DNA from: Brachionus koreanus
Taxonomy: Eukaryota; Rotifera; Eurotatoria; Ploima; Brachionidae
Assembly: GCA_016987375.1 (NCBI GenBank)
Contig: PJRA01000453.1
Span: 116,096 to 180,095, forward strand
Direction: 5' to 3'
Length of the DNA: 64,000 nucleotides
Shown here: one piece after another, positions 1,194 through 16,535 of the stretch
Layout of the letters: each line of letters opens with the position of its first letter
How positions within the stretch are numbered: position 1 is the stretch's first letter
The notes under the pieces: model-generated
What the model was told of the DNA's origin: nothing
Databases searched by the model: none
The model's input: only the letters and a program-made list of their open reading frames with translations
Program-made: the position numbers and the translations under genes

Positions 1194-4100
1194 ATAAGCA
1201 CTTTGACAATAACAACTGGCTCTTTCAGTCTAAAAATATTGAAAATTCAAAAACTTCAAATAATGAATTTCAAGTATTGACATCATTTTTTCCCAAGTCA
1301 AAACTAAAGCCTCAAGTCAGCAAAGAAAATTCAACTGAATCAAAATCTTTCAACTGGACCATTTACGTTTACACATCGCGAGTAAAAGGCGCTGGTACAG
1401 ATGCTGCAGTTTACATGCAAATATTCGGTACAAAAGGAAACACGGCCCAGTTTTTTCTAGACGATAATAAAAATTCAAAAAAATTGTTTGAAACAGGAAA
1501 TTGTGATCGATTTGATCGTAACCTGGCCGATATTGGCAAGCCGTTAAGAATCAAAATTGGCCACGACAACAAAGGCATGCTTGCTGGATGGCATCTGGAA
1601 AAAGTTGTTCTACACGATAATATTACTGACAATAAATTTGTCTTTCACTGTAATCGTTGGTTGGCAAAAGACGAACTGGATCATCAAACAGAAGTTGAAC
1701 TTACGATGGATGCTAACAGAAAATCTATTTCAATAAGCTCTTGGAATAGTGATGATGACGATTCGTTGAGTGCCAATTTAAAAGCCTCGCCTTTAAAACA
1801 GGGCATTTTATTGAAGCAAATCGATGAGGAAAAGTTAAACGAGTCTCTTCAGCCCAAACAACAAGTTATTCAAAAACCGCCAGAAATTTCCGATTTTGAG
1901 AGTTCAGATGATGAAAAATTTCAACCAAAACAGCTTAATTCAACAAAAAAATCCGATCAAATTTCTTTGAATTTTACAAATGTGACACCAGTACAAAATG
2001 CAGATAATAACACATCAGCACTTTCGTTTCTTGTCAAAAATAACCTGCCAAAACAAAACTCAATTGTTAGCAATGGCTCACAAAATGAAACAATAGGACA
2101 ACTAGTCGCTGGTCTAACACCTAAAAAACAAACCGAAACTGACAACGATAAAAACGAAGATTTTAATAGTTCTATTAAATTTTTGCTAGATAATAATCTG
2201 GTGCCAGAACCAGTTAAAAAAGCTGACTCATTTGACGATCTAGTCCAAGAATTCGAGCAGGGATTTATACCCAAAGAGCAGCCAAAGGGCATAAGTGAGC
2301 TTATAAGAGAGGAAAAAAATATTCCTAAACCGATGGGAATCAAAGAACTAATTCAACAAGAAAAGAATAAAAATGATTTTTTTGACAGTGATTTTAGTTT
2401 GTCTAAATCAGACGCTAAACCAGAAAATAACGAGCCACCTGGATTAAAAGAATTGATAAGAGCTGAGAGAAAAAGCCAAACTTCTGATGTATTTGACGAA
2501 TTTAGCTCTCCTAGGTTCAAGCCTGAGCCTAAATCGGAAACACTAGATGATTTAGAAAAGCAGTTCAATAATGTTATGGAAGAGAAGAGTAATTCACCAA
2601 TTAAAGCTTTGGTTGAGGCGTCTATACCTCCGCCTGGGTTCAGAAATGAAGAAGCCTTGAAGAAGACAACCTATGATGAAAAAGGAAAAAATTTAAAAGT
2701 CAATTTTGAGGATTCGGATGAAGTTGATGAAGAAATTGAACAACTGGCCAGTCCTAGAAAGCCTGGAGTTATTGATCAGGGATTAGGCGCTTTCATAGGA
2801 AGCTATAGAGACTCTCCGAGTCCGAGAAAGCCGTCATTTTACGATATTGTGCCAGAAATGCTCGATGACAAAGACAAAGAGGACACTTTGGAAAGACTAA
2901 AGAAAAAAAATGATGATTTAGAAGTGGCCAAATCTGAGCTGGAGACGCAGCTTAACGAAAGTGAGGATCAGAAAAAAAAATTCGAAACTGGCTTTAACAA
3001 TTTGAATAGGCTTTTGGCCGAAAAAGAAAAATTAATTGCTCAAATGAACGCTGAAAAGCTTAGAAATTCACTTGGCAATTCATTGGACCTAAATGCTGAA
3101 ATTGAAAAGCTTAAAGAAGAAAAACATTTGCTTGAAAAACAATTGTCTGAAAAGAAATCGTTGCAAAATAGTCAAGATTTTGATGTAGCAGGCCAAAACG
3201 AAAGCTTAGCGGTTAAAGTTAAGGCATTGGAAAATCAAATTGAAGAGTTGAACAAGGATAGAAAAATACTCGCTGATTACAAGGAAGACTTGTGTCAAAA
3301 ATTGGATGAACAAGAAGACGAGATTAAGAATCATCAAGAAGCTTTGCAACTTGCCACATTGCAATTCAATGTTGAAAAAAAAAATCTAAATGACGAAATA
3401 TCCAAATGTAAAAAACAATTGCATGATTTGAACGAATTGAAGCGAAATTTAGAGCTTTTGGTCGAAAATTTAAAAAAAGAACTAGCTGAGAAAAATTTTA
3501 GCTACGAAAAATTACAAATGGAAAAGTCGAACTACGAAGAACAGGCCAAAAAAATAGGTGAAGAGTGTTCAAAAGTGAAAAATTTGTACGACACCGATTT
3601 GGCCAAGCTCAAGGATGAAAAGTATAAATTAATGGAAAGACTGGCCATTGCTGAGGCTAAGCTTATAAACACGGAAAAAGATGCTCAATATACTTCGAGC
3701 CAAATTGACGAAAGACACAAGCAAGTTGAAGACCTAAGAGAACAACTGGTCAAATCCAAGGCTGATTTTACTATACAGCTTAATTTGTTGCAGCGAGAAA
3801 AAGAAGAAAAAGATTCGTTAGTGAAAAAAATTAACGAATTGGAATCAGTGGTACAAAAAAACTTACAAGAAATATCCGATCTAAAATTGAGAAATTTAAC
3901 TCAACAACAAGAGCTTAATGAAAAAAATGAGAATATAAATGTTAAAATAGAGAATGAGAATAAAAAACTTCAGAACGATGTTAAGACACTGAGTGAAAAA
4001 TTGTTCAAAACTGAAACCGAATTGGAAAAGCTTAAAATCACACAGCGTATTGAACAGTCTTATGATGAATTCGACTTTCCCGATGCTAACGAATCCACCG

Positions 4101-7100
4101 TCAAAAACAGTAGAAAAAATAATTTTAATGAAAAAATTCATGTAAGTATTTTTATTTATAAAAAAAAATGAAGCCAATGTTACAAAATCTCTTGTTAAAT
4201 TTTAACACTCAAAAGTCGAATAGGTTTTTTCGACTTATAATTAATAAAATATCCTAGTTGATAATGAGGAGGTGCTCATCTCCTTTTCCAATACTCTTTT
4301 GAGCAACAACTTCGATCTGACACAGGGGCTACTGCATCGAGTTCATCATCTACGCAACAATTATTTAGTATGCACAGACCACTAATTTGATCAAACAATT
4401 CTTCACTGTGAACTTAGTCAAGAAAAAGGAAAAATAGCAGCATTAATGAGAGACAAAACACAGCTTTATCATTTAGGCTTTTACTATAGACTGACTCGAT
4501 CTGTAGAATAAAAAATAAATATGTTGCTTTAAATGAACAAAATAAAAGTCTCTTAAGTGAAAGTAATTCGTGTTAATTATTTTGCTTTTCGACATTTTTA
4601 CAATTTATAGAATAATCTGATAAAAATACATTTAGGTAAATTGTATCTATTACTCTTTTTTACTCCTTTTTTCTTTTGTAAAAATTCAAAATTTTCAAAT
4701 TTGAGGGTTTAAACGAAAGCGAAGGCTATTCGGACAAACCCAGGGGCATTTCCCCACAATTATTTATTAAAAAAAATTAAAAAATGTAAAATTAGCAATT
4801 AAAAATTAATTTATACAAATGAATAATAAATAATTGGATTTTTTTTCGCAGAGAGAGAAACTACCATAATGAAACAAAATTTAGTCTCGTTCAAAAAAAA
4901 AAAATGATTAATTATTTTGTATGAGTAGAAAAAATTGTAATTGTAAAAGATATTTTTTAATATTTTTGAACGAATATTTACATTTAAGTCAATAAAAATA
5001 ATGATGGAAACTTAAATTTAATTTTTTTTCTTGCTTCACATTGAAAATCTTTTCTATAGTTGAGAAGTAATTTTATAACAAAAACATGCGTTAAAATTAA
5101 ATTATTAAGTTTATTCATAAAGAAAAATTATTAAAAATTTAGTTATTAAGATCAAAAAATTTTTATTCTCTAAAAAACTTAAATACCAACTCAAAGAGTT
5201 GTTTAATACAAAGAATATAATTTTCTAAAAAGAAAATCAGTAAATGTCTAGCCTATGTAATAGGTAAATTCTAGCACAAAACACAACAATATCTAAATTA
5301 AGGCACAATTTTTAATACTTTTATTCGTCAATCAATTTTTGTTTATAAAAATTAAAGAAAAATTTAAAAAGAAATTAAACTATAAAAATGATGAAAAGCA
5401 ATTTAAATTTAAAAGATTTATTAAATTTTAACTTACCAATATACCTCATACCTCATTTTTGTTATACTCTGTTTCCAAAAGTTTCATGTCAGTAATATGA
5501 ATATTGAAATTAGAAAATGCCTATCGATGTTAATATAAATTTGAATAGAAAAAAAGCGAAGTTCCAAGACTTAAGAATTGAAAATAATTTTATTTTTCCA
5601 GAAATCTCCATACAATTAAAAAGTTAATTTGAGAGGTTAATTATGGCTCTAAAAATATTTATAAAAAATAGTTTCAACCTTAAAGGCATGTGGCAATTAA
5701 GAAAAAAATCAATACTTTGCCAAATAACTAATAAATTGGTCTACAAAAGCTTTTAAGTTATTGTATTGAGAATAAATTTTGTTCGCAAATGAATATTCAA
5801 CTTTATTAAAAAAAAAGTTAAAATTTAAATAAATAAAAGAAAATTGCATTGCTTGACAATTGCTTGATAAACAAACAAGACCCAGGATATCAAAAAAAAA
5901 TAAAATATTTCAAATATAAGTATATTCTTTAAAGTTTTCAATTTTATTTAAATTAAGCTTTTATTTTATTCGTTTCAAATAAATAATACGCAAATTTAAC
6001 ACTTTATTTTTAATGTTATAATAATTGTTGAAATTTATAAAAATGTATAGTGAAATTCAAATACAAACAAAACAAAAATTCTTCCTTTTTTGAAAAATCA
6101 AAATTTATTAAAATAAAATAATTAGAAAAAATTATTGTAAAAAAGTTCAATATACTTTGTTGCTACTATTTTTACTTAATTTATTTTTTCTTATGCAAAA
6201 AAAGACAACAAAATAAAACATCAATTCGATTTAAATTGACTATTGATTTGATTCCCTAAAAAAATATATAGTAATTTTGTTTTAGATAGAAGCAGCAAAC
6301 TTTGAAGCACATTTTTGCAGTATTTTTTTAAAGTATCTTAGTAAATTTTAATTAATCAAAATAGTAAGAAACTTTGGTTTGTTTTTAGTTGAAATTCATA
6401 ATACCATGAAAATTAGCTATAATACAATTTAAAATTTCTTAAGTAAATATTCAAATATTTTATCATTAAATAAGGTTATGTTTAATAACAATATTGAATC
6501 AAATATTTATATTTAAAAAACAATTAGTAGAACAAATTTTTAAAATAAAACTCAGCTTTAGTAGGAAAAAATATGGAGCGAGGCTAGCACGCTTTGATAG
6601 CTCTTATTTTCTGCAGATGATGCGATGTCAAGTCGGCATTTAAAGCTGTTCTTTGAGAGGCTATTTATCAAATCAGAGGGTAGTTAGTTACAGTTTTTGA
6701 TCTTTCTATTTGTTAGGAAGTTTTCGCGTAACTTGGTCTTTGTGCATTGTATCGATATCCTGTCTTTGTGAACCTCTAATACCATCTGCTGTTTCATTTA
6801 ATGTAAGTGGACAGCATTTCTTCCCAGGCTTTTGCCATTCTGGCATACTAAATTTTTGTTAATTTAAATTTTTATTATTTAAAAAAATTTAATTAGATCT
6901 CCTCATTTTATTCTTTCTTTTTAAGTTAAAAAGTTAAGCTTAAACAATTTTTTCGTAGGTAAGGTGTTTTATCTCAAGAACCGATTTTGTGGCACGCCTC
7001 TGTATTTTTTCTAGTGTTATTATGTCTTTTATAGCCTATTGGTTTTAGGTTACCACAACATACTCCATATGAGGTTTTGCAAAAGTTACATAAAGTTGAA

Positions 7101-8244: not shown

Positions 8245-8554
8245 TTGATTTTTTTTTTCTCCTAAAAAGAAATTATCTATACATTCTAGTAATTCGAATA
8301 TAATCATCTTTAAATATTAAAAAAAAAAAGCAATTAAATTTTTTTAAAATTTATTTCAAGATAAATTTTTAATTCAACTTTTAAGTATTTTTTTTTTGAA
8401 CATATAACTAAAAATATTATTTTATAAAAAAATAAATTTTAAATAATTAAGTTAATTTTTTATATCTTTTTAAAGTATGAGTTCAATAAAAATACAACCT
8501 ATAAGTGAAAAAATTTATGTTGTTAGCAACAATTATAAGGAAAACAGAAAAAGG

Positions 8555-9312
8555 ATCTGTTTAGGGTTTTGTTCATTTTTTGAATGATTTGCCAGTCTTT
8601 TTAAAAATCTTAATATCAAAATGTTTGCAGATGATAAAACATTAGGCATCGCTGAAAAATATACAAATTGGTCTAAAATTTATTGTATGTTTTTTGCAAA
8701 TAATAAATATTTGGTCCCAGAAAAATCAAAATATTTTGAAGAATTTTGATTCTTAAGATTTATAATTGATCAAGATCTTATTTTTTCAAAACTTGCATGT
8801 AATTAATCGATGAATAGGAAACTTCTGTAAGAGTTCAAATTTTTAAGACTAATATTGTTACTTTAATTGATTATTTCTCTTCTCTTTTATGTTGTTTTTC
8901 AAAGGAAACAATCCTAAAATTAATTTTTTTTCACCTAATGTGAAGCATAGAGCCATTTGATTTCTTTGTAACTAGTTTAATTCTTGGAAGGTCGGGTGGT
9001 TAGCTCTACGCACTTGTCGACTGTTCGAACCACTTCACCACAGAACCGGCAATCTTAAAATTAGCAAAGTGTTCTAATTTATCCATCAAAAAACTCTTGA
9101 ATTTAAAATTTGGATTAAAAAGCTTTAATGACACAAAAAAAATTTTAGAAAAATATGGTCTTTATTTATTTCGGCAAAGAATGTTAGAAAGAATGATTAC
9201 TTTTTTTAAAAGCATCGTTTATGTGATAAAGGAACCGATGACTAAATCGAAAAGTCAAGAAAAAACATTCGAACATTCGAATTTCAATAGCATAAATTTA
9301 ATTTTTTTTTAG
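8555..9312 (+). pseudogene. LINE reverse transcriptase relic
   Basis: The plus strand reads 'FLNDLPVFLK' and, after a one-base shift, 'MFADDKTLGIAEK', which is the catalytic FADD region of a non-LTR polymerase. About 450 bp on, 9097-9312 is an open frame ('LEKYGLYLFRQRMLERMITF') that resembles the C-terminal helices of such polymerases. The two blocks are probably one decayed copy. Frameshifts and stops separate them. The 3' part is assigned less surely than the FADD block. Confidence 0.6.
8988..9050 (-). repeat. Possible tRNA-derived SINE remnant
   Basis: The minus strand contains 'GGTTCTGTGGTGAAGTGG', an A-box-like start; the plus strand contains 'GTGGTTAGCTCTACG' and 'TGTTCGAACCA', also promoter-box-like. 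No cloverleaf closes, so this is at most a tRNA-like remnant of uncertain orientation inside the LINE relic. Confidence 0.3.
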
Positions 9313-9416
9313 ATTTTGTTTCAAAATTTGAATTATTTAACTAGAATATCTTGATGTTTAATTTTTCAAATAACTATGTAAAAAAAAATTATATTTATTC
9401 GTAATCTTTTATTATA

Positions 9417-9576
9417 CAGTACGTTTTAAAACTAACTTCATCGATTTATTTTCCTTTCCTCTTCCTTTCCTCTTCCTTTCTTCTTCCTTTCCTCTTCCTT
9501 TCTTCTTCCTTTCCTCTTCTCCGCTTTTCCTCTTCTTTTCCTCTTCCTCTTCCTCTTCCTTTCCTCTTCCTCACTT
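9417..9576 (+). repeat. Left terminal inverted repeat with polypyrimidine array
   Basis: The terminus runs to about 9447, then about 125 bp of imperfect TTTCCTCTTCC units (11 bp) to about 9572. It is the inverse of 14640-14816. Confidence 0.85.
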
Positions 9577-9802
9577 TGAAAAAGTAAAAATTAAAGAAAA
9601 TAATAAATTATGCTAATTCATAATCTAATTTAAAATAAAAAGCATAAAAAAATTAACTACATTATGTTATGTTCGTTAAATTATGCACTTTGCTAATTTC
9701 CACTGTTTACATGTACTTATTGCTAACTTGAATTAAACACTAAGCTTTGATAAATTTTGATTTAAATTAAAACAAAACCAGTTGATGAAAATTTAAATTA
9801 GG

Positions 9803-12282
9803 ATGTTTGAAATTAACAGTAAGGTACAAGCTCTCGACAACATTTGCTCGAAATGGCGAAACGCTGTGATTGTGGACTTTAAGGATGATAAATATACTAT
9901 TCATTTTGAAAACTTTTATAATAAATATAATACTGTTTTTGAAAAAGGTAACTTTTATCAAGAAAAATCAAATAATAAAGACTATTCACTATTTTGATGA
10001 CAATAAGATTTTTTACGCCTACCTATTGAAGAGAGAATAATTCCCAGGAATGCTTTGAATGTTAAATCCTGTGAATTAAGTAACTTGATTATCAATGACA
10101 AAGTAATTATAAAATTAGACAACGTTGAACACGAGGGTATATTCAATCAATTAAATCTTAATATTAAATTCTAGTTGATTTTCTTAAAAAGCCACTGTAT
10201 TGCTTAACGACCCCTTTCTTTGTACCTTAACGGTAAAAGAATTCAATTGTCGAAAGTTTCCATATGAAGATATTATGATGACAAATAAAAATGAACTAGA
10301 ATTCAAAAAAAAAATAGTTTCAAAAAATTAAAATAATAATGTATTAATAATTTATTAAATAAATTTCTTTTAAGAAAATATAAATGCAATATATCTTTAA
10401 AAAAGGCTTCAAACAGATTAAAAAAACAATCATCTTTTATGGATACAAAAGAACTGGAATTGGCTACAGTTAAAAAAAAGTCTAATATGAAACATTCACA
10501 CTCTGCTCAACTAATTGATGATCATACTCCTGTAAGATTTTGTCACACTTTATGAAAGAATTTGTTTAATCTTAAATCTGTAAAAAAATTATATTTTTTT
10601 AGATTCAAATTCATGCTAATTATATAGGCAAAACAGATAAAAAATCTCTACAGTTTGAAAACAGTCATCAAAAAATCAAAAATAAATTGGACTTGAATAA
10701 GTTTGAGATTGAAAAATTGGACGAGTATAAAAAGCAATTCAATGAGAAATTAAGCAAAGTGACAGAAGTTAATGGGAAAAATCTAGCAGAGATAAATTCT
10801 TCAATTCTTACTGTTAATAAAAGTCTAAACGATTTAACAGAAAATGTAATTAATTTATTTTATTTATTTTATTCATTGGCAATGTGAAAACTTAGTAAAA
10901 AAATTACAGTACAAAAATGAAAAATTGAATTTTTATGCTGTAACAAATTTTAATTTAAAATTTTTCTTTAACAATTTCATGTACGATACTTTAATATTTA
11001 AAAAATATAAAAATAAAAAAAATCTTTTGAAAATCATCAATAAATGAATCAAATTGATTTTCTATCAGAACATTTGTTAAGTTAGATTATTTAAAAAAAT
11101 TTTCAGTTGGTTTACTCAGAATTTATAAAGTTTTAATTTAAAAAAAATAATACAAAAAGTGTATATTGTACCTTATGGCTTCTTAAAGATTACGAACTCG
11201 ATGATTGCAAATGGTCAAAAAATTTTTATTTTTTTATTGATCATATTTAGTGAACTGATCAATAAATATTTTATTCAGATTATAAAGAAATTTTAGATTG
11301 TACTAGATTTGTACATGATTGTACAAGTTTTTTTATTTTCGAGAAATAAAAATTAAGTGTAATTTAACTATTTTTCTATTTAAATTTTTTTATTTTGTAA
11401 TAAATGTACTAAGTTTTCACATTGCCTTATTCATTTCAGTTAACGCCTAGAAGGCGATGTAAAAAAAAAAATTTTAAAAATAAGAAAACTAAAAAAAATA
11501 AAAATAATTTTAATGCTAATTAATGCAAAACAGTGATTTTATAAACTTATTTTTTTGAAATGAGGCTCATAATTTATCTAAAAAATCTTAAATAATAAAT
11601 TTTGAATATCTTAGTCTCTTCTAAAATAGTAACCAGTTAATGCTATCACTGTATCTTACAGATCTTTTTATTTTTTCCTCTTAAGATGAGTAAAATATTT
11701 TCAAATATGGCTCAACTATCGAGTGAATTTTTGAATAAATTTAATAAGAATTTTGAAACTTTAAATGGAAATTTGGAAAAAATAGAAAAAAAAATTTCAA
11801 CAACTGATTTTGTAACATCTAGTAATTGTGTTGAAAAAGAATTGAGATGCGAAGAATCAGACTTGATTCAAAACTTTCCTGATATTTTTGATCAAAATCA
11901 TTTTAACCAAATTTCGACAGAAAGTTTTAACAAGAAATCTAGTCCTTGTTCTGATGAAATTCAACAAAAAGATTATTTGTCTGATCAAGAGATTCAAAAA
12001 GAGATTCTTCCAGCAGGCACATCTGGAATTTCTTTTGCAGCTAATCTTCTAGAAAAATTATTTTGTATCAATGAATTGCAAGGTTGCAATGTATATGGTA
12101 AAGGCAAGAAAGATCTGGCTAAAAAACCACTTGATGCCCAAAAAATTGAATACATTCAAAATTTATCAGAAAGTCTATTTAATCCCAGTAGAAAAAAAGA
12201 TTTTTGGAAAAACTGCACTAATCATATGAATAAAAGGATTCACAAATTACTTAAGACTGAAGAAGACAAAGAGAACTTATGA
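9803..12282 (+). CDS. Transposon passenger: Tudor-like / helical / BEN-domain protein
   Basis: Exons supported by sites and frame: 9803-9947 (ATG start, donor GGTAACT); about 10008 to about 10134 (phase 1 joins as Asp); 10375-10531 (donor after CCT); 10603-10845; 11686-12282 (TGA). The joins 10531/10603 and 10845/11686 are phase 0. The link from the second to the third exon is unresolved: a 38-bp intron ending TTCTAG at 10173 is possible, but a stop follows. Exons 1-2 read 'VQALDNICSKWRNAVIVDF' then 'KYTIHFENFYNKYNTVF', the pattern of a Tudor/Agenet-like reader module (basic 'W.nA.I' strand, then 'iHF'). The middle is Lys/Glu-rich helix. The last about 90 residues match a BEN domain: 'AANLLEKLFCINELQGCNVYG', 'KKPLDAQKIEYIQ', 'FWKNCTNHMNKRIHKLL'. 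BEN domains bind DNA or chromatin proteins. It lies wholly between the transposon termini. Confidence 0.7.
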
Positions 12283-12314
12283 TAGCCAATTAATATAAAG
12301 TAAATTTTTGAGTC

Positions 12315-12524
12315 TAATTTTTTATTTACAATTTTTTTTTATGTTCAATGTCTTAAGTAATTTCAATTTAAAAAAAATTTTTTTGTATTTTTTATTTATC
12401 TAGCTTTTATTTACAAAGTAATATAACTTATAATTTTTTATTTACAATTTTTTTTTATGTTCAATGTCTTAAGTAATTTCAATTTAAAAAAAATTTTTTT
12501 GTATTTTTTATTTATCTAGCTTTT
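12315..12524. repeat. 94-bp direct duplication abutting an assembly gap
   Basis: 12315-12408 and 12431-12524 appear identical, period 116 bp, and the second copy ends exactly at the N run. This pattern is common when a scaffolder leaves overlapping contig ends unjoined, so it may be an artefact. Confidence 0.8.
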
Positions 12525-12628
12525 NNNNNNNNNNNNNNNNNNNNNNNNNNNNNNNNNNNNNNNNNNNNNNNNNNNNNNNNNNNNNNNNNNNNNNNNNNNN
12601 NNNNNNNNNNNNNNNNNNNNNNNNNNNN
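12525..12628. other. Assembly gap (104 N)
   Basis: Run of N between the 3' ends of the BEN gene and the transposase gene. The true length is unknown. Confidence 0.99.
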
Positions 12629-12641
12629 AAAAAAAAAAAAT

Positions 12642-13916
12642 TTAATATCCTGTAGCGTAGCCATTGTTTAAAATCACATGTGGAAGAACACGATTAATGT
12701 GTAAAATATAATTTCTACATTATTCTGGAGTCAATATTTTTTGCCAGAATTCACCAATTACCTTAATCAGTCCTACTTTAGTATTTGGTTTATTCTGCCT
12801 TACAAAAGTTTTTAATTCATGCCAGACCAACTCAATAGGGTTCAGATCCTGAAATAAATTTTTTTCAATTAAATTAGATATGCACTAAATTATGCTTACA
12901 GGACTTTGTGCAGGAGTTGGCCAATGATTTATTTTATTGACAGTTAACCATTCTTTGGTGATTAAGGAAGTGTGCTTTCGATCATTATCCATGATTAGCC
13001 TATGTCCACCAGGAAAATTAGTACTAAATTTGAAAAATCAATAGAAATTTTGGTTTTTGCTAATTAAATCTAAATGATTACTTTATAAAAGGGATAAGAT
13101 TGGTTGATAAAATATTTATAAAATCAGTGCTCTTCATTATACCTGAAAATATACAAATTGGAGTAGGTCCACGACTACTAATACCTGCCCAGAGAAGTAA
13201 CTTTTTTGATTCAAACCATGATTAGTTTAAGTAAAAACAGTAGTTTTAAAATAATTACTTTCAGCGGATGCTTAGCAACAGGGGCTTTATAATAGCGGCT
13301 ATTTTTATGAACCCAACTTAAACAGAAATATTTCAAAAAATTTATTTCAAAAATTAATTTTTACTGTTTTAATGTATGAATATCTAATTCAATCATACTT
13401 TCATCAATAAAAATGCAGTCATCAAAATATTCTTCAGTGAGCAAACATAAATTACAATATAAACTTCTTTTAATTGCATTTTTTGTAGAGACAATTTGAC
13501 AGTATCTTAATGTTTGAATTATTAAATGAAAAGATTATAAAATTTTTATACAACCTGGTCATTTTTCTGGACCATTTGACTTTTTTTGCCGCATTTATAA
13601 TCAAAGTTTTCGATACAGTAATCGAAAATTTTCTTTTTATTAATAAAATTAAAGACTCAATTGTAATTTGCCTGTTGAAAGCAATAGTTTCATCTAAATA
13701 TTCGAGATGCTCCTGGCTTAATTTCGGTTTTCTTCCAGAGCGCTTGTTATCAACAAGGCTTTTACAATTTTTGTATCGTTTACAAATTGCAAAAATTGAT
13801 CTCTTTGAAATAGTTAGACCTTCGTTTTGAATAGCTTGTCTAACTTGTTCAAGCGATAATTTAACTTCAAACCTAAAGTAAACAATTCTTTGACGATAAT
13901 GTAAAGATGCTTTCAT
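12642..13916 (-). CDS. Tc1-like DD34E transposase, six exons, one nonsense codon
   Basis: Exons 13916-13555, 13505-13365, 13316-13259, 13200-13082, 13023-12900 and 12848-12642 join in frame (introns 48-58 bp, all GT-AG) to 336 codons, normal Tc1 size. Exon 1 holds the paired helix-turn-helix DNA-binding region ('RFEVKLSLEQVRQAI', 'SGRKPKLSQEHLEYL'). The catalytic triad is visible: first Asp in 'CIFIDES'; second in 'LIMDNDRKHTS'; then 34 residues to Glu in 'SPDLNPIELVW', a motif split by an intron between Pro and Asp. The C-terminus 'RVLPHVILNNGYATGY' is canonical. In the last exon, TAA replaces the residue after 'KILTPE', where relatives have a sense codon, cutting off the last 21 or so residues. 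That makes full activity doubtful; the rest is intact. Confidence 0.85.
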
Positions 13917-14639
13917 TTTCTTATAATAAAGTTTAATGGATTTTTTAAAAATAACATTCTATTTTGATTTATTCAGTAATTTTATTTTAAATTAAATTAC
14001 ATATTGAGTCAAAAAAGACTTAACGTTTTTCTTAATTTATGCAAAAATAATATTCATACGATCAACTGTCTTTCTGTCAAAGAAATTTGCTCTCATGTTA
14101 TTATCAAGAAATTATAAGATCAAAGTTGATAAATTTTATTTTACAAATGAATTTCCCAGCAACCCAAAATTGATTTATACTTTGTTAAAAAAAATAGTTT
14201 CGAATTTAATCAAAGAGAACTGGTGTGAGCTTTAATTTAAGAATTAATTATCAATTAATATAACTCCTTATATTCACGCATTCACGTTGCATCTGTTTTA
14301 ACTTCAAAGACCATATTGATTATTTTACAAGCAAGGATTCAAATAATCAAACAAAGAGCATTGCTATTCTTTGAACTAAATATCGCTAACAATGTAGAAG
14401 CTAATTATTCGAGGATTGCAGAAAGATCCTTAAATTATCAATTAATCAACTAACTTTTTCTCATGAGCTGAATTTCTCCTTTTACATTAAAATTATCCAA
14501 TTAAATATCAACTGTGATAAACTACAAAATTTTGTTGAATAAATTATAATAAATAAATAAGTGTTCAATCTCTATTTTTACATGCGATCAACTCAATTTG
14601 ATAAATTAACATAATTTATTATTTTATTTAAATTTTTGT

Positions 14640-14816
14640 CTTCCAAGATAGGAAGAGGAAAGGAAGAGGAAGAGGAAAGGAAAAAGAAGAGGAAGAGGAA
14701 AGGAAGAAGAAGAGGAAGAGGAAAGGAAGAAGAAAGGAAGAGGAAAGGAAGAGGAAAGGAAGAAGAAAGGAAGAGGAAAGGAAAGAAATCGATGAAGTTA
14801 GTTTTAAAACGTACTG
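14640..14816 (-). repeat. Right terminal inverted repeat with polypurine array
   Basis: About 140 bp of imperfect GGAAGAGGAAA units is followed by the inverse of the left terminus, ending ...CGTACTG at 14816 with TA after it. The array also creates an artificial Lys/Arg/Glu reading frame that is not a gene. Confidence 0.85.
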
Positions 14817-16535
14817 TATTTTTATTGATTTTTAATATTTTGCATTTTATTCATTATCTATATATATTTTTTATTGAATTTAACAAATTAATTTAAATTA
14901 ATTTCTTTAGGAATGGGAATTAACCTGTTGATTAAACCTGAAATTAAAATTGCAAATTTATTCCTAACACCTGAAAATTTACCAAGGGATTATTTGACAT
15001 AGCCTAGTTTTATTTTAATTGTTTTTTTATTAACTCGCGATTGGGGAATGAAAATATTAAAGTTTAATATTTTTCAAAAAAAAAAAAGCGTTTTTGAAAT
15101 TTGTCGTTGTAACCTTTGATCATGACCAACAGTCATTTTATGGGGTCTAAAAAGATTCACAAAATTTTGTCATAATGAGATGATCATAACTTCTGCCTAA
15201 TAAAAAGATAATCAATAACAATGCACAATTTTTTTAAGAGAAATTTAGCAAGGATACCACAAATTTTATTAGAATAACTACAAAAATGAAAAAAAAAAAC
15301 TTTTTTTTTATTATTTGACACCAATTTGATTAAAATGACAATGAAAATAAAAAAAAATTATTTTTTTACTTGTGACACTAAATTTTTTTATTTTTTGTAC
15401 AAAAAGTAGCGTTTTTTCTTCTTTTGCGCGCCACATTGATCACACAATTTTGCTTGTTTGTTTTAAATTCCTTCTACATTGTTTGCCTCCAATTTTGTTC
15501 TTTCTGAAACTGGTTCCTCTTCTTCAAATCAGACTCACTAGACTCGATGTCTTTTGGAACAGTTTTAAAAGCTTGTGTTTCATTCGGTTGCTTTTTCAGT
15601 GTAATAGCAGTATTTAACGGTCTGCCTATTTTACGGTTCGATTGAATTAGAACGTCCATTCCTATTTTTAGAGCTATTTGATGATGACTGCACTAGACAT
15701 CTTATTTTATTTTCCATTTTTTTTTTTAAGAAAAAATTGCTTTATTTTATACATTATGTATTTTCAAATTATATTACATTTATTAAAAAAATTGTGTTTT
15801 TTTTTTCAATTTAAGTTTTGTGGTACCGGTTTTAATGGCCTTTTTATAAATAGTTACTTTTTAATTTTTGGATAAAAGTATTTCAAAAATTTTTGATTAA
15901 AATAATTTTCCTAGTCAATTTAATTGAGATTAAAAACCAAAACTTAATGAATTACAATTTTCATCATTTTTAGAACATTTTATACCAATTTTTTTTCAAA
16001 ATACAAAGTTTTATTTTAGTTTTGTGTTTTTTTTTTCCAGTTGAGTTTGTAAAAGGTCAATTATTTATAAGTTTATTTTCTAATTTGAATTTAAAAACAC
16101 TTGATTTAGAACAAAAGAATTTATTTTTTTTATTTATATTTTATCAATTAATCATTTTTTTTACTCATTTATTTTATTTTATAATTAATCAAACAATAAA
16201 AAAATAATTTTTTTAAAAATTCTCGTAGAAATGAATCATATTTTCTGTTAATGTGCTGTTTTTTTCGAGATGTTTACAAAAAAAATAAATATATTTCTAT
16301 GCATTTATGCAAATCAATTAATGTCTTATCTAGAAGCAAAACATTTTAAAGGCGCATGATGAAGCAATAAACTAATTTAAATTATTTTCTGATTTATTAT
16401 TTTTCAATAAAAAAAAATCAAATGTAGAAAAAATCAATCAAATTTTAATTTAAAAAATAATTTGATGAAAAAAAAATTAGTTTTTTTTTTGTTTTAAATG
16501 CTGAATAATCACTAAAAAATTTGATTCATAAACGA
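14817..16535. other. AT-rich intergenic stretch
   Basis: No gene is supported. On the minus strand 15474-15680 a short open stretch contains 'NRKIGRPLNT' and nearby 'CDQCGAQKKKKR'. These are too short and frame-broken to name, but could be the end of another decayed element. Confidence 0.5.

What the first reader, a model, noticed from the sequence alone, without database searches (positions are those of the whole stretch)
9417..14816. Tc1/mariner transposon carrying its own BEN-domain chromatin-type gene
Seen: matching inverted termini starting CAGT, TA flanks on both sides, a DD34E transposase on one strand, and a spliced multi-exon gene with a C-terminal BEN domain on the other, all inside the termini. 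Known: most Tc1/mariner elements encode only transposase. Inference: the passenger may help the element choose or open target chromatin, protect or silence it, or regulate transposase. I have a vague memory that BEN-type accessory genes have been reported in some DNA transposons, but cannot confirm it; this architecture with Tudor-like exons may be new.
Basis: partly seen in the sequence, partly recalled or inferred. Interest (0 to 1): 0.87.

Follow-up and report, generated by a model that had tools for sequence, protein, structure and literature searches.

The report
Rotifer transposon with second BEN gene
A jumping gene of the Tc1/mariner type, in what is probably a Brachionus-like rotifer, carries besides its transposase a second spliced gene for a likely DNA-binding chromatin-type protein, and traces of that second gene tied to similar elements elsewhere suggest that it is a long-standing part of the transposon.

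Summary
Window 9417-14816 is a 5.4-kb element with 31-bp identical inverted ends, TA on both sides, a spliced DD34E transposase on the minus strand (DDE_3, 68.4 bits) and a six-exon, 454-codon open gene on the plus strand ending in a BEN domain (29.3 bits, cut-off 23.2). The transposase has a late in-frame stop. Three results tie the second gene to the element. (1) Its N-terminal part was found at two places in the 83-Mb genome: here, and at C47 inside a diverged element with CAGTAC ends and TA flanks, again convergent with the transposase. (2) The only database relative found, a Brachionus plicatilis protein, matches exons 5-6 at 65% and ends in 17 residues identical to a translation of this element's right-end array. 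(3) A decayed piece of exon 6 lies on C20. Caveats: the BEN domain itself was seen in the window copy only; 8 of 8 other places bearing the window's ends gave no match to either protein. The literature searches listed no BEN gene in a Tc1/mariner element. Best mechanism (inferred): an element-encoded DNA-binding helper of the transposase, like the Myb-like protein of Harbinger. New variant of a known kind.

The parts
9415..9416 (.). TA target-site duplication, left
   Evidence: sequence
9417..9447 (+). left terminal inverted repeat, 31 bp identical to the right one
9448..9572 (+). left subterminal array of about 11-bp pyrimidine-rich units
   Evidence: families D2, D4; inverted pairs I1-I13
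9803..9947 (+). passenger gene exon 1 (N-terminal, weakly Agenet-like)
   Evidence: open frame with GT-AG sites; homologous relic at C47
10008..10136 (+). passenger gene exon 2
10192..10316 (+). passenger gene exon 3 (3' junction uncertain)
10406..10531 (+). passenger gene exon 4 (5' junction uncertain)
10603..10845 (+). passenger gene exon 5 (coiled-coil look, by eye)
   Evidence: 79% identity to P0001 over 86 residues from its first codon; the exon 5/6 junction is contiguous in P0001
10878..11426 (.). unrelated short element nested in intron 5 (inverted ends GGCAATGTGAAAACTTAGTA, 9-bp duplication TTATTCATT)
   Evidence: (I24); ends of a second copy in L021
11686..12282 (+). passenger gene exon 6: coiled-coil-like part and C-terminal BEN domain (residues 116-187 of the exon)
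   Evidence: PF10523 E 9.9e-7, 29.3 bits over cut-off 23.2
12525..12628 (.). unread stretch (N)
12642..12719 (-). former transposase C-tail beyond the stop
   Evidence: against P0004
12720..12848 (-). transposase exon 6 with the third catalytic residue (DLNPIE) and the early stop TAA at 12722-12720
12900..13023 (-). transposase exon 5 with the second catalytic D (MDND)
13082..13200 (-). transposase exon 4
13259..13316 (-). transposase exon 3
13365..13505 (-). transposase exon 2 with the first catalytic D (FIDES)
13555..13916 (-). transposase exon 1, helix-turn-helix region
   Evidence: HTH_32 below its cut-off; frame
13978..14601 (.). dispersed repeat in the right arm, unassigned
14647..14785 (+). 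right subterminal purine array
   Evidence: D1; encodes the peptide RGRGKEEERKRKGRGKE at 14711-14761
14786..14816 (-). right terminal inverted repeat
14817..14818 (.). TA target-site duplication, right

Best explanation
This is a two-gene Tc1/mariner (DD34E) transposon, probably of a rotifer. Shown: one pair of inverted ends with TA flanks encloses a transposase gene and, converging on it from the other strand, a spliced open gene that ends in a BEN domain; the N-terminal part of that second gene is paired with a transposase in the same way in a diverged element of the same genome. Inferred: the second protein works in trans for the element. Its BEN domain binds DNA, most simply at the element's own ends (the end repeat holds the palindrome GTTTTAAAAC followed by some ten short array units, which short derivatives keep), the coiled-coil-like middle joins copies, and the protein helps the transposase bring the ends together or work on chromatin, as the Myb-like protein does for Harbinger transposons.
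For: Ends and TA flanks. Both genes inside them. The passenger's first 133 residues matched 2 places in the genome at E up to 0.1, both inside such elements: the window and C47:546335-547566, whose 28-nt arms (TA included) are 96% complementary and read TACAGTAC..., with passenger residues 1-78 (37%) on + and transposase residues 3-125 (41%) on -; the passenger match scores 51.6 bits against at most 24.6 for 200 shuffled queries. B. plicatilis P0001: 65% over residues 176-362, then a tail identical in 17 of 17 residues to the right-end array at 14711-14761; in this genome 13 of 14 hits of the array 26-mer lie in the element (9) or beside a matching end (4). Passenger frame open although the transposase has a stop. 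The two short copies read in full, on C38 and C26, keep ends and array. BEN domains as sequence-specific DNA binders (abstract starts of PMC7764960, PMC10206803, PMC11472053); the Harbinger helper (passage of PMC9179366).
Against: The BEN domain itself was seen only in the window copy: C47 keeps the N-terminus, C20 a 140-bp piece of exon 6, and P0001 leaves the passenger before the BEN domain. No second full-length copy was found in this genome, and 8 of 8 other places with the window's ends match neither protein. P0001 is a gene prediction joined to a reverse-transcriptase-named stretch; its DNA could not be seen, and array specificity was tested in this genome, not in B. plicatilis. Nothing tests binding, expression or a need for the protein. 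Tc1/mariner transposases studied so far work without an encoded helper (recalled), and 10 of 10 other transposase loci here with 1.5-kb flanks, and L068, show no passenger.
Confidence: 0.5

Rival explanations
1. The second gene is a true resident of the element but acts as a regulator or shield: the BEN protein coats or silences the element, or represses the transposase promoter, so limiting damage to the host.
For: [quoted passage not shown] The residency evidence is the same as for the best explanation.
Against: No promoter or binding evidence; the genes converge, so they do not share a promoter region.
Confidence: 0.25
2. The gene is a host BEN gene picked up by the element and carried without benefit, slowly decaying.
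For: The host has other BEN genes (C2, C25:915 kb, C8:1,781 kb), the nearest 41% identical in the domain; the BEN domain was found in one element copy only; the gene's intron 5 has taken in a foreign short element.
Against: The 454-codon frame is intact although the transposase beside it has a stop. The N-terminal part matched no host gene, only the window and the C47 element. The pairing is older than the split of two subfamilies at about 40% protein identity, unless it was made twice.
Confidence: 0.15
3. Not one element: a BEN gene and a transposase relic happen to lie between two short elements with the same ends.
For: Places with these ends and no gene match exist (8 of 8).
Against: Each flank of the window has one outward-facing end, not a whole short element with two ends; C47 repeats the arrangement with other ends; P0001 repeats passenger plus array.
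Confidence: 0.04
4. The protein steers target choice through a Tudor/Agenet-like reader at its N-terminus.
For: Sub-threshold Agenet match, residues 12-39, E 0.035; that N-terminus is the part kept in C47.
Against: Below the Pfam cut-off (15.0 against 27 bits); no structure could be had.
Confidence: 0.06

Closest known systems
Tc1/mariner DD34E transposons (Sleeping Beauty, Tcb2-like)
   Same: TA duplication, inverted ends, DDE_3 catalytic domain with DD34E; 4.4e-18 to Sleeping Beauty; the named best hits are a Tc1-like entry of B. calyciflorus and Tcb2-named entries of B. plicatilis and Holothuria leucospilota
   Different: 5.4 kb, second spliced gene on the other strand, five introns in the transposase, polypurine/polypyrimidine arrays inside the ends
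TBE and Tec elements of ciliates
   Same: Tc1/mariner relatives with DD34E and three open frames (passages of PMC7325037)
   Different: Their extra frames include a zinc-finger protein (TBE) or a site-specific recombinase (Tec), not a BEN protein; hosts are ciliates; TBE ends are telomere-like
PIF/Harbinger transposons with a Myb-like helper
   Same: Two-gene layout with an element-encoded DNA-binding protein; proposed here to work alike (passages of PMC9179366)
   Different: Different transposase family; helper is Myb/SANT-like, not BEN; target duplication differs (recalled)
BEN-domain chromatin factors (BEND3, NAC1, BANP, Insensitive)
   Same: PF10523 over its cut-off; best solved-structure match is BEND3 at E 0.22, not significant
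   Different: Those are host genes; virus-carried BEN genes, as in bracoviruses, are recalled (PMC4574769 seen in the listing only) and are not between Tc1/mariner ends

Membership tests
Tc1/mariner superfamily | DDE catalytic domain of the DDE_3 type with DD34E/D spacing | tested here: met
   DDE_3 68.4 bits, cut-off 28.6; 34 residues counted on the spliced translation; Sleeping Beauty 4.4e-18
Tc1/mariner superfamily | TA target-site duplication | tested here: met
   TA at 9415-9416 and 14817-14818; no empty site available
Tc1/mariner superfamily | terminal inverted repeats | tested here: met
   31 of 31 bp
Tc1/mariner superfamily | N-terminal helix-turn-helix DNA-binding region | tested here: inconclusive
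   HTH_32 27.8 bits on exon 1 and 24.7 on the spliced protein, cut-off 33.7; 35-39% identity over 95-100% of the query to five proteins that carry HTH domains (P0005, P0006, P0009, P0011, P0012)
BEN domain (PF10523) | score over the curated cut-off | tested here: met
   29.3 bits, cut-off 23.2
BEN domain (PF10523) | sequence-specific DNA binding | not testable with these tools
   needs protein; single-sequence fold of exon 6 failed, mean pLDDT 37.6
Tudor/Agenet | score over the curated cut-off | tested here: not met
   Agenet 15.0 bits, cut-off 27
PIF/Harbinger | Harbinger-type transposase and Myb/SANT-like second protein | tested here: not met
   transposase is DDE_3/Tc1; no Myb match listed for residues 1-133 at E up to 1 or for exons 1, 5 and 6 at E up to 10; exon 4 was not scanned
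TBE (ciliate) | telomere-like ends and zinc-finger frame | tested here: not met
   ends are CAGTACG...; no zinc-finger match listed for the parts scanned

The most novel reading that the evidence does not exclude
A two-protein Tc1/mariner system in an animal in which a BEN protein is a required partner of the transposase, recognising the end arrays; and the host gene at C2/C27 that joins a Tc1-type helix-turn-helix to two BEN domains is a domesticated fusion of the two components. Both halves of that host gene are among the nearest relatives found in this genome of the element's two proteins, though its helix-turn-helix is only marginally closer to this transposase than to some other Tc1 proteins (47.3 against 45.9 bits).
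Probability: 0.2. Interest if true: 0.82.

Novelty: new variant of a known kind. Interest (0 to 1): 0.62.

Why it matters
Tc1/mariner transposons are taken as the model of a one-gene mobile element and are used as genetic tools for that reason (recalled). An animal lineage in which such an element keeps a chromatin-type DNA-binding gene through subfamily splits would show that the family can evolve helper proteins, and would give a direct assay (with and without the second protein) of whether a BEN protein can aid or curb transposition. It would also offer a route by which BEN and transposase DNA-binding modules meet and become host genes.

Tried and rejected
Host-gene origin of the passenger N-terminus: a genome-wide protein search at E up to 0.1 found only the window and C47. 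A DNA search with 9800-10870 found, besides itself, two short matches of 69-92 bp at 76-79% on C29 and C27, in the A+T-rich part of intron 3; not followed. Other full copies by end sequence: 10 matches of the 29-base end at 8 other places; all 8 were fetched with 1.5-kb flanks and none matches either protein at E up to 0.01; two (C26, C38) have both ends and are 133 and 315 bp. Three weaker end matches (C92, C21, C20:1255 kb) were not fetched. Empty site: the right flank matches only itself over its first 400 or so bases, then dispersed repeats; left flank not searched. BEN structure: single-sequence model of exon 6, mean pLDDT 37.6, not used for a fold search. A protein search with the BEN region alone gave nothing at E up to 0.1 among 42 candidates; the whole-protein search scored only the 8000 candidates sharing most words. 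IMG/VR scan for exon 6: 16 pattern matches, no relative. L025 (C8) as another example of the pairing: transposase N-terminus present, no passenger match, but 3900-4708 of the part read is N. L023 (C20) relic: no paired TACAGT ends in its 10 kb. L068, another Tc1 element: transposase match, no passenger match better than E 0.18. The 10 transposase loci L042-L051 (10 of 61 DDE_3 matches), 1.5-kb flanks: 0 of 10 match the passenger at E up to 0.01; a passenger farther off would be missed. Literature: searches (3 of 3 papers listed; 12 of 12; 2 of 2; 20 of 116 listed) show no paper on a BEN gene in a Tc1/mariner element; titles and abstract starts were seen, and passages of PMC12062965, PMC11075544, PMC5704228 and PMC11954553. 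Searches (extra frames in mariner, 12 of 130 listed; TBE, 8 of 19 listed) were looked at as listings. Subscription papers and Repbase are not covered.
Full report
What is there. The window (G+C 27%) lies on contig C25 of an 83-Mb, 92-contig genome. The best named relatives of both element proteins are from Brachionus plicatilis and B. calyciflorus, so the host is most likely a Brachionus-like rotifer (inference). Positions 9417-14816 are bounded by 31 identical inverted bases beginning CAGTACG, with TA outside on both sides. Inside each end lies an array of about 11-bp pyrimidine/purine units. The longest exact inverted match between the outer 1-kb flanks is 13 nt, so the ends are not chance.

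Transposase. The minus strand carries six exons, 13916 to 12720, with five GT-AG introns of 48-58 bp, giving 310 residues. The spliced protein scores 68.4 bits for DDE_3 (cut-off 28.6) and 4.4e-18 to the Sleeping Beauty catalytic domain; the second D and the E are 34 residues apart. Relatives: 46 proteins at E up to 1e-5 among 524 candidates, among them P0002 of B. calyciflorus (59% over 86%) and P0004 of B. plicatilis (66% over 52%). P0004 goes on for about 25 residues past the place where the window has a stop, and the window's sequence after the stop resembles that tail. So this copy's transposase is cut late; whether it still works is unknown.

Second gene. The plus strand carries six exons, 9803-12282, that read 454 codons without a stop. 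The junction between exons 3 and 4 is one of several that keep the frame. The last exon has a BEN domain at 29.3 bits (cut-off 23.2). Intron 5 holds an unrelated short element with a perfect 9-bp duplication.

Does the gene belong to the element? The protein search scored the 8000 candidates sharing most words and gave one relative, P0001 of B. plicatilis, 516 residues. It matches residues 176-362 at 65%. The match starts exactly at the window's exon 5 and runs on without a break over the exon 5/6 junction, which supports that intron. P0001 leaves the passenger before the BEN domain, and its last 17 residues are identical to the plus-strand translation of the right-end array at 14711-14761. 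In the window's genome the array is close to specific: of 14 hits of its 26-mer, 9 are in the element, 4 lie beside a matching end, and 1 (C6) has none. The simplest reading is a B. plicatilis copy in which the stretch from the BEN domain to the right array is deleted or left out by the gene model.

A second line is in the window's own genome. A search with the first 133 residues of the passenger gave four rows: three are the window's and one is C47:546515-546748. At C47 (locus L024) the match lies inside a 1.2-kb element whose 28-nt arms (TA included) are 96% complementary and read TACAGTAC.... On its other strand stands the transposase's N-terminus, 41% identical, with a weak match to the start of exon 2 after the same intron position. 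The passenger match scores 51.6 bits; the best of 200 shuffled queries scores 24.6. The centre is missing and both frames hold stops. The two subfamilies differ by about 60% in protein and, by eye, in most of the end sequence, so the pairing predates their split, or was made twice. Third, a 140-bp piece of exon 6 at 83% lies on C20, without paired ends.

Against this reading: in none of the three relics was the BEN domain seen. The other 8 places with the window's own ends, fetched with 1.5-kb flanks, match neither protein; two have both ends and are 133 bp (C26) and 315 bp (C38), the rest showed single ends. L068 on C26, another Tc1 element of about 1.6 kb by its inverted arms, has no passenger, and 0 of 10 other transposase loci with 1.5-kb flanks match the passenger. 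So the second gene marks one lineage, not Tc1 elements at large.

How it may work. BEN domains are described as sequence-specific DNA binders in chromatin proteins (abstract starts). The two short derivatives read in full keep the ends and the array and little else (C38 also keeps part of the right arm), which suggests that ends and array are needed in cis. An element-encoded DNA-binding protein that acts with a transposase has a clear precedent in Harbinger, whose Myb-like protein is imported with the transposase and binds the ends (passage of PMC9179366). I therefore hold a helper role most likely, a regulator or silencer next, and a passive passenger less likely because the frame is intact while the transposase is not. 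All of this is inference; no binding or activity was tested.

What is known. Tc1/mariner elements with extra genes are known in ciliates: TBE with a zinc-finger protein and Tec with a recombinase (passages of PMC7325037). A BEN gene between Tc1/mariner ends was not found in the papers listed by four full-text searches (in one search only 20 of 116 were listed). I rate it a new variant of a known kind.

A host gene worth noting. Five BEN matches were found in the genome: two in one gene on C2, one each on C25 (915 kb), C8 and in the element. The C2 gene begins with a Tc1-type helix-turn-helix and ends with two BEN domains; a near-identical locus on C27 shows the helix-turn-helix exon, the rest of that gene's place reading largely N. 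It is the nearest host relative found of the passenger's BEN domain (41%) and, after C47 and C8, the next match to the transposase's N-terminus (33%). A reciprocal comparison puts the window's transposase first but only just (47.3 against 45.9 bits), so descent from such an element is possible, not shown.

Noticed in passing
L019 3993-6638 (C2) and L022 5287 downwards (C27): A host gene joins a Tc1-type helix-turn-helix to two BEN domains (both BEN matches read on C2; on C27 only the helix-turn-helix exon was seen); the surrounding C2 and C27 stretches are near-identical in opposite orientation, as if duplicated or two haplotypes.
   Followed up: partly
window 10878-11426: Short element with ends GGCAATGTGAAAACTTAGTA and a perfect 9-bp duplication TTATTCATT nested in intron 5 of the BEN gene; both ends of a second copy lie in L021 at about 8341-8663.
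   Followed up: partly
window 13978-14601: Dispersed repeat inside the element's right arm with about 30 other places at 68-92% identity; at least six of those copies hold about 150 bp more at one point. The end-bearing C38 copy shares 14475-14682, so the repeat was in the element before that copy arose.
   Followed up: partly
L024 5325-5547: Short element with ends CACTCAAAGGACCGGC and TTAA flanks (piggyBac-like, by recall) nested in the right end of the C47 relic.
   Followed up: no
window 15233-15847: Another dispersed repeat, just right of the element, with dozens of matches in the genome.
   Followed up: no
window 12315-12524: A 94-bp stretch is repeated exactly at 12431-12524, 116 bp on, right before the unread N stretch, between the two convergent genes.
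   Followed up: no
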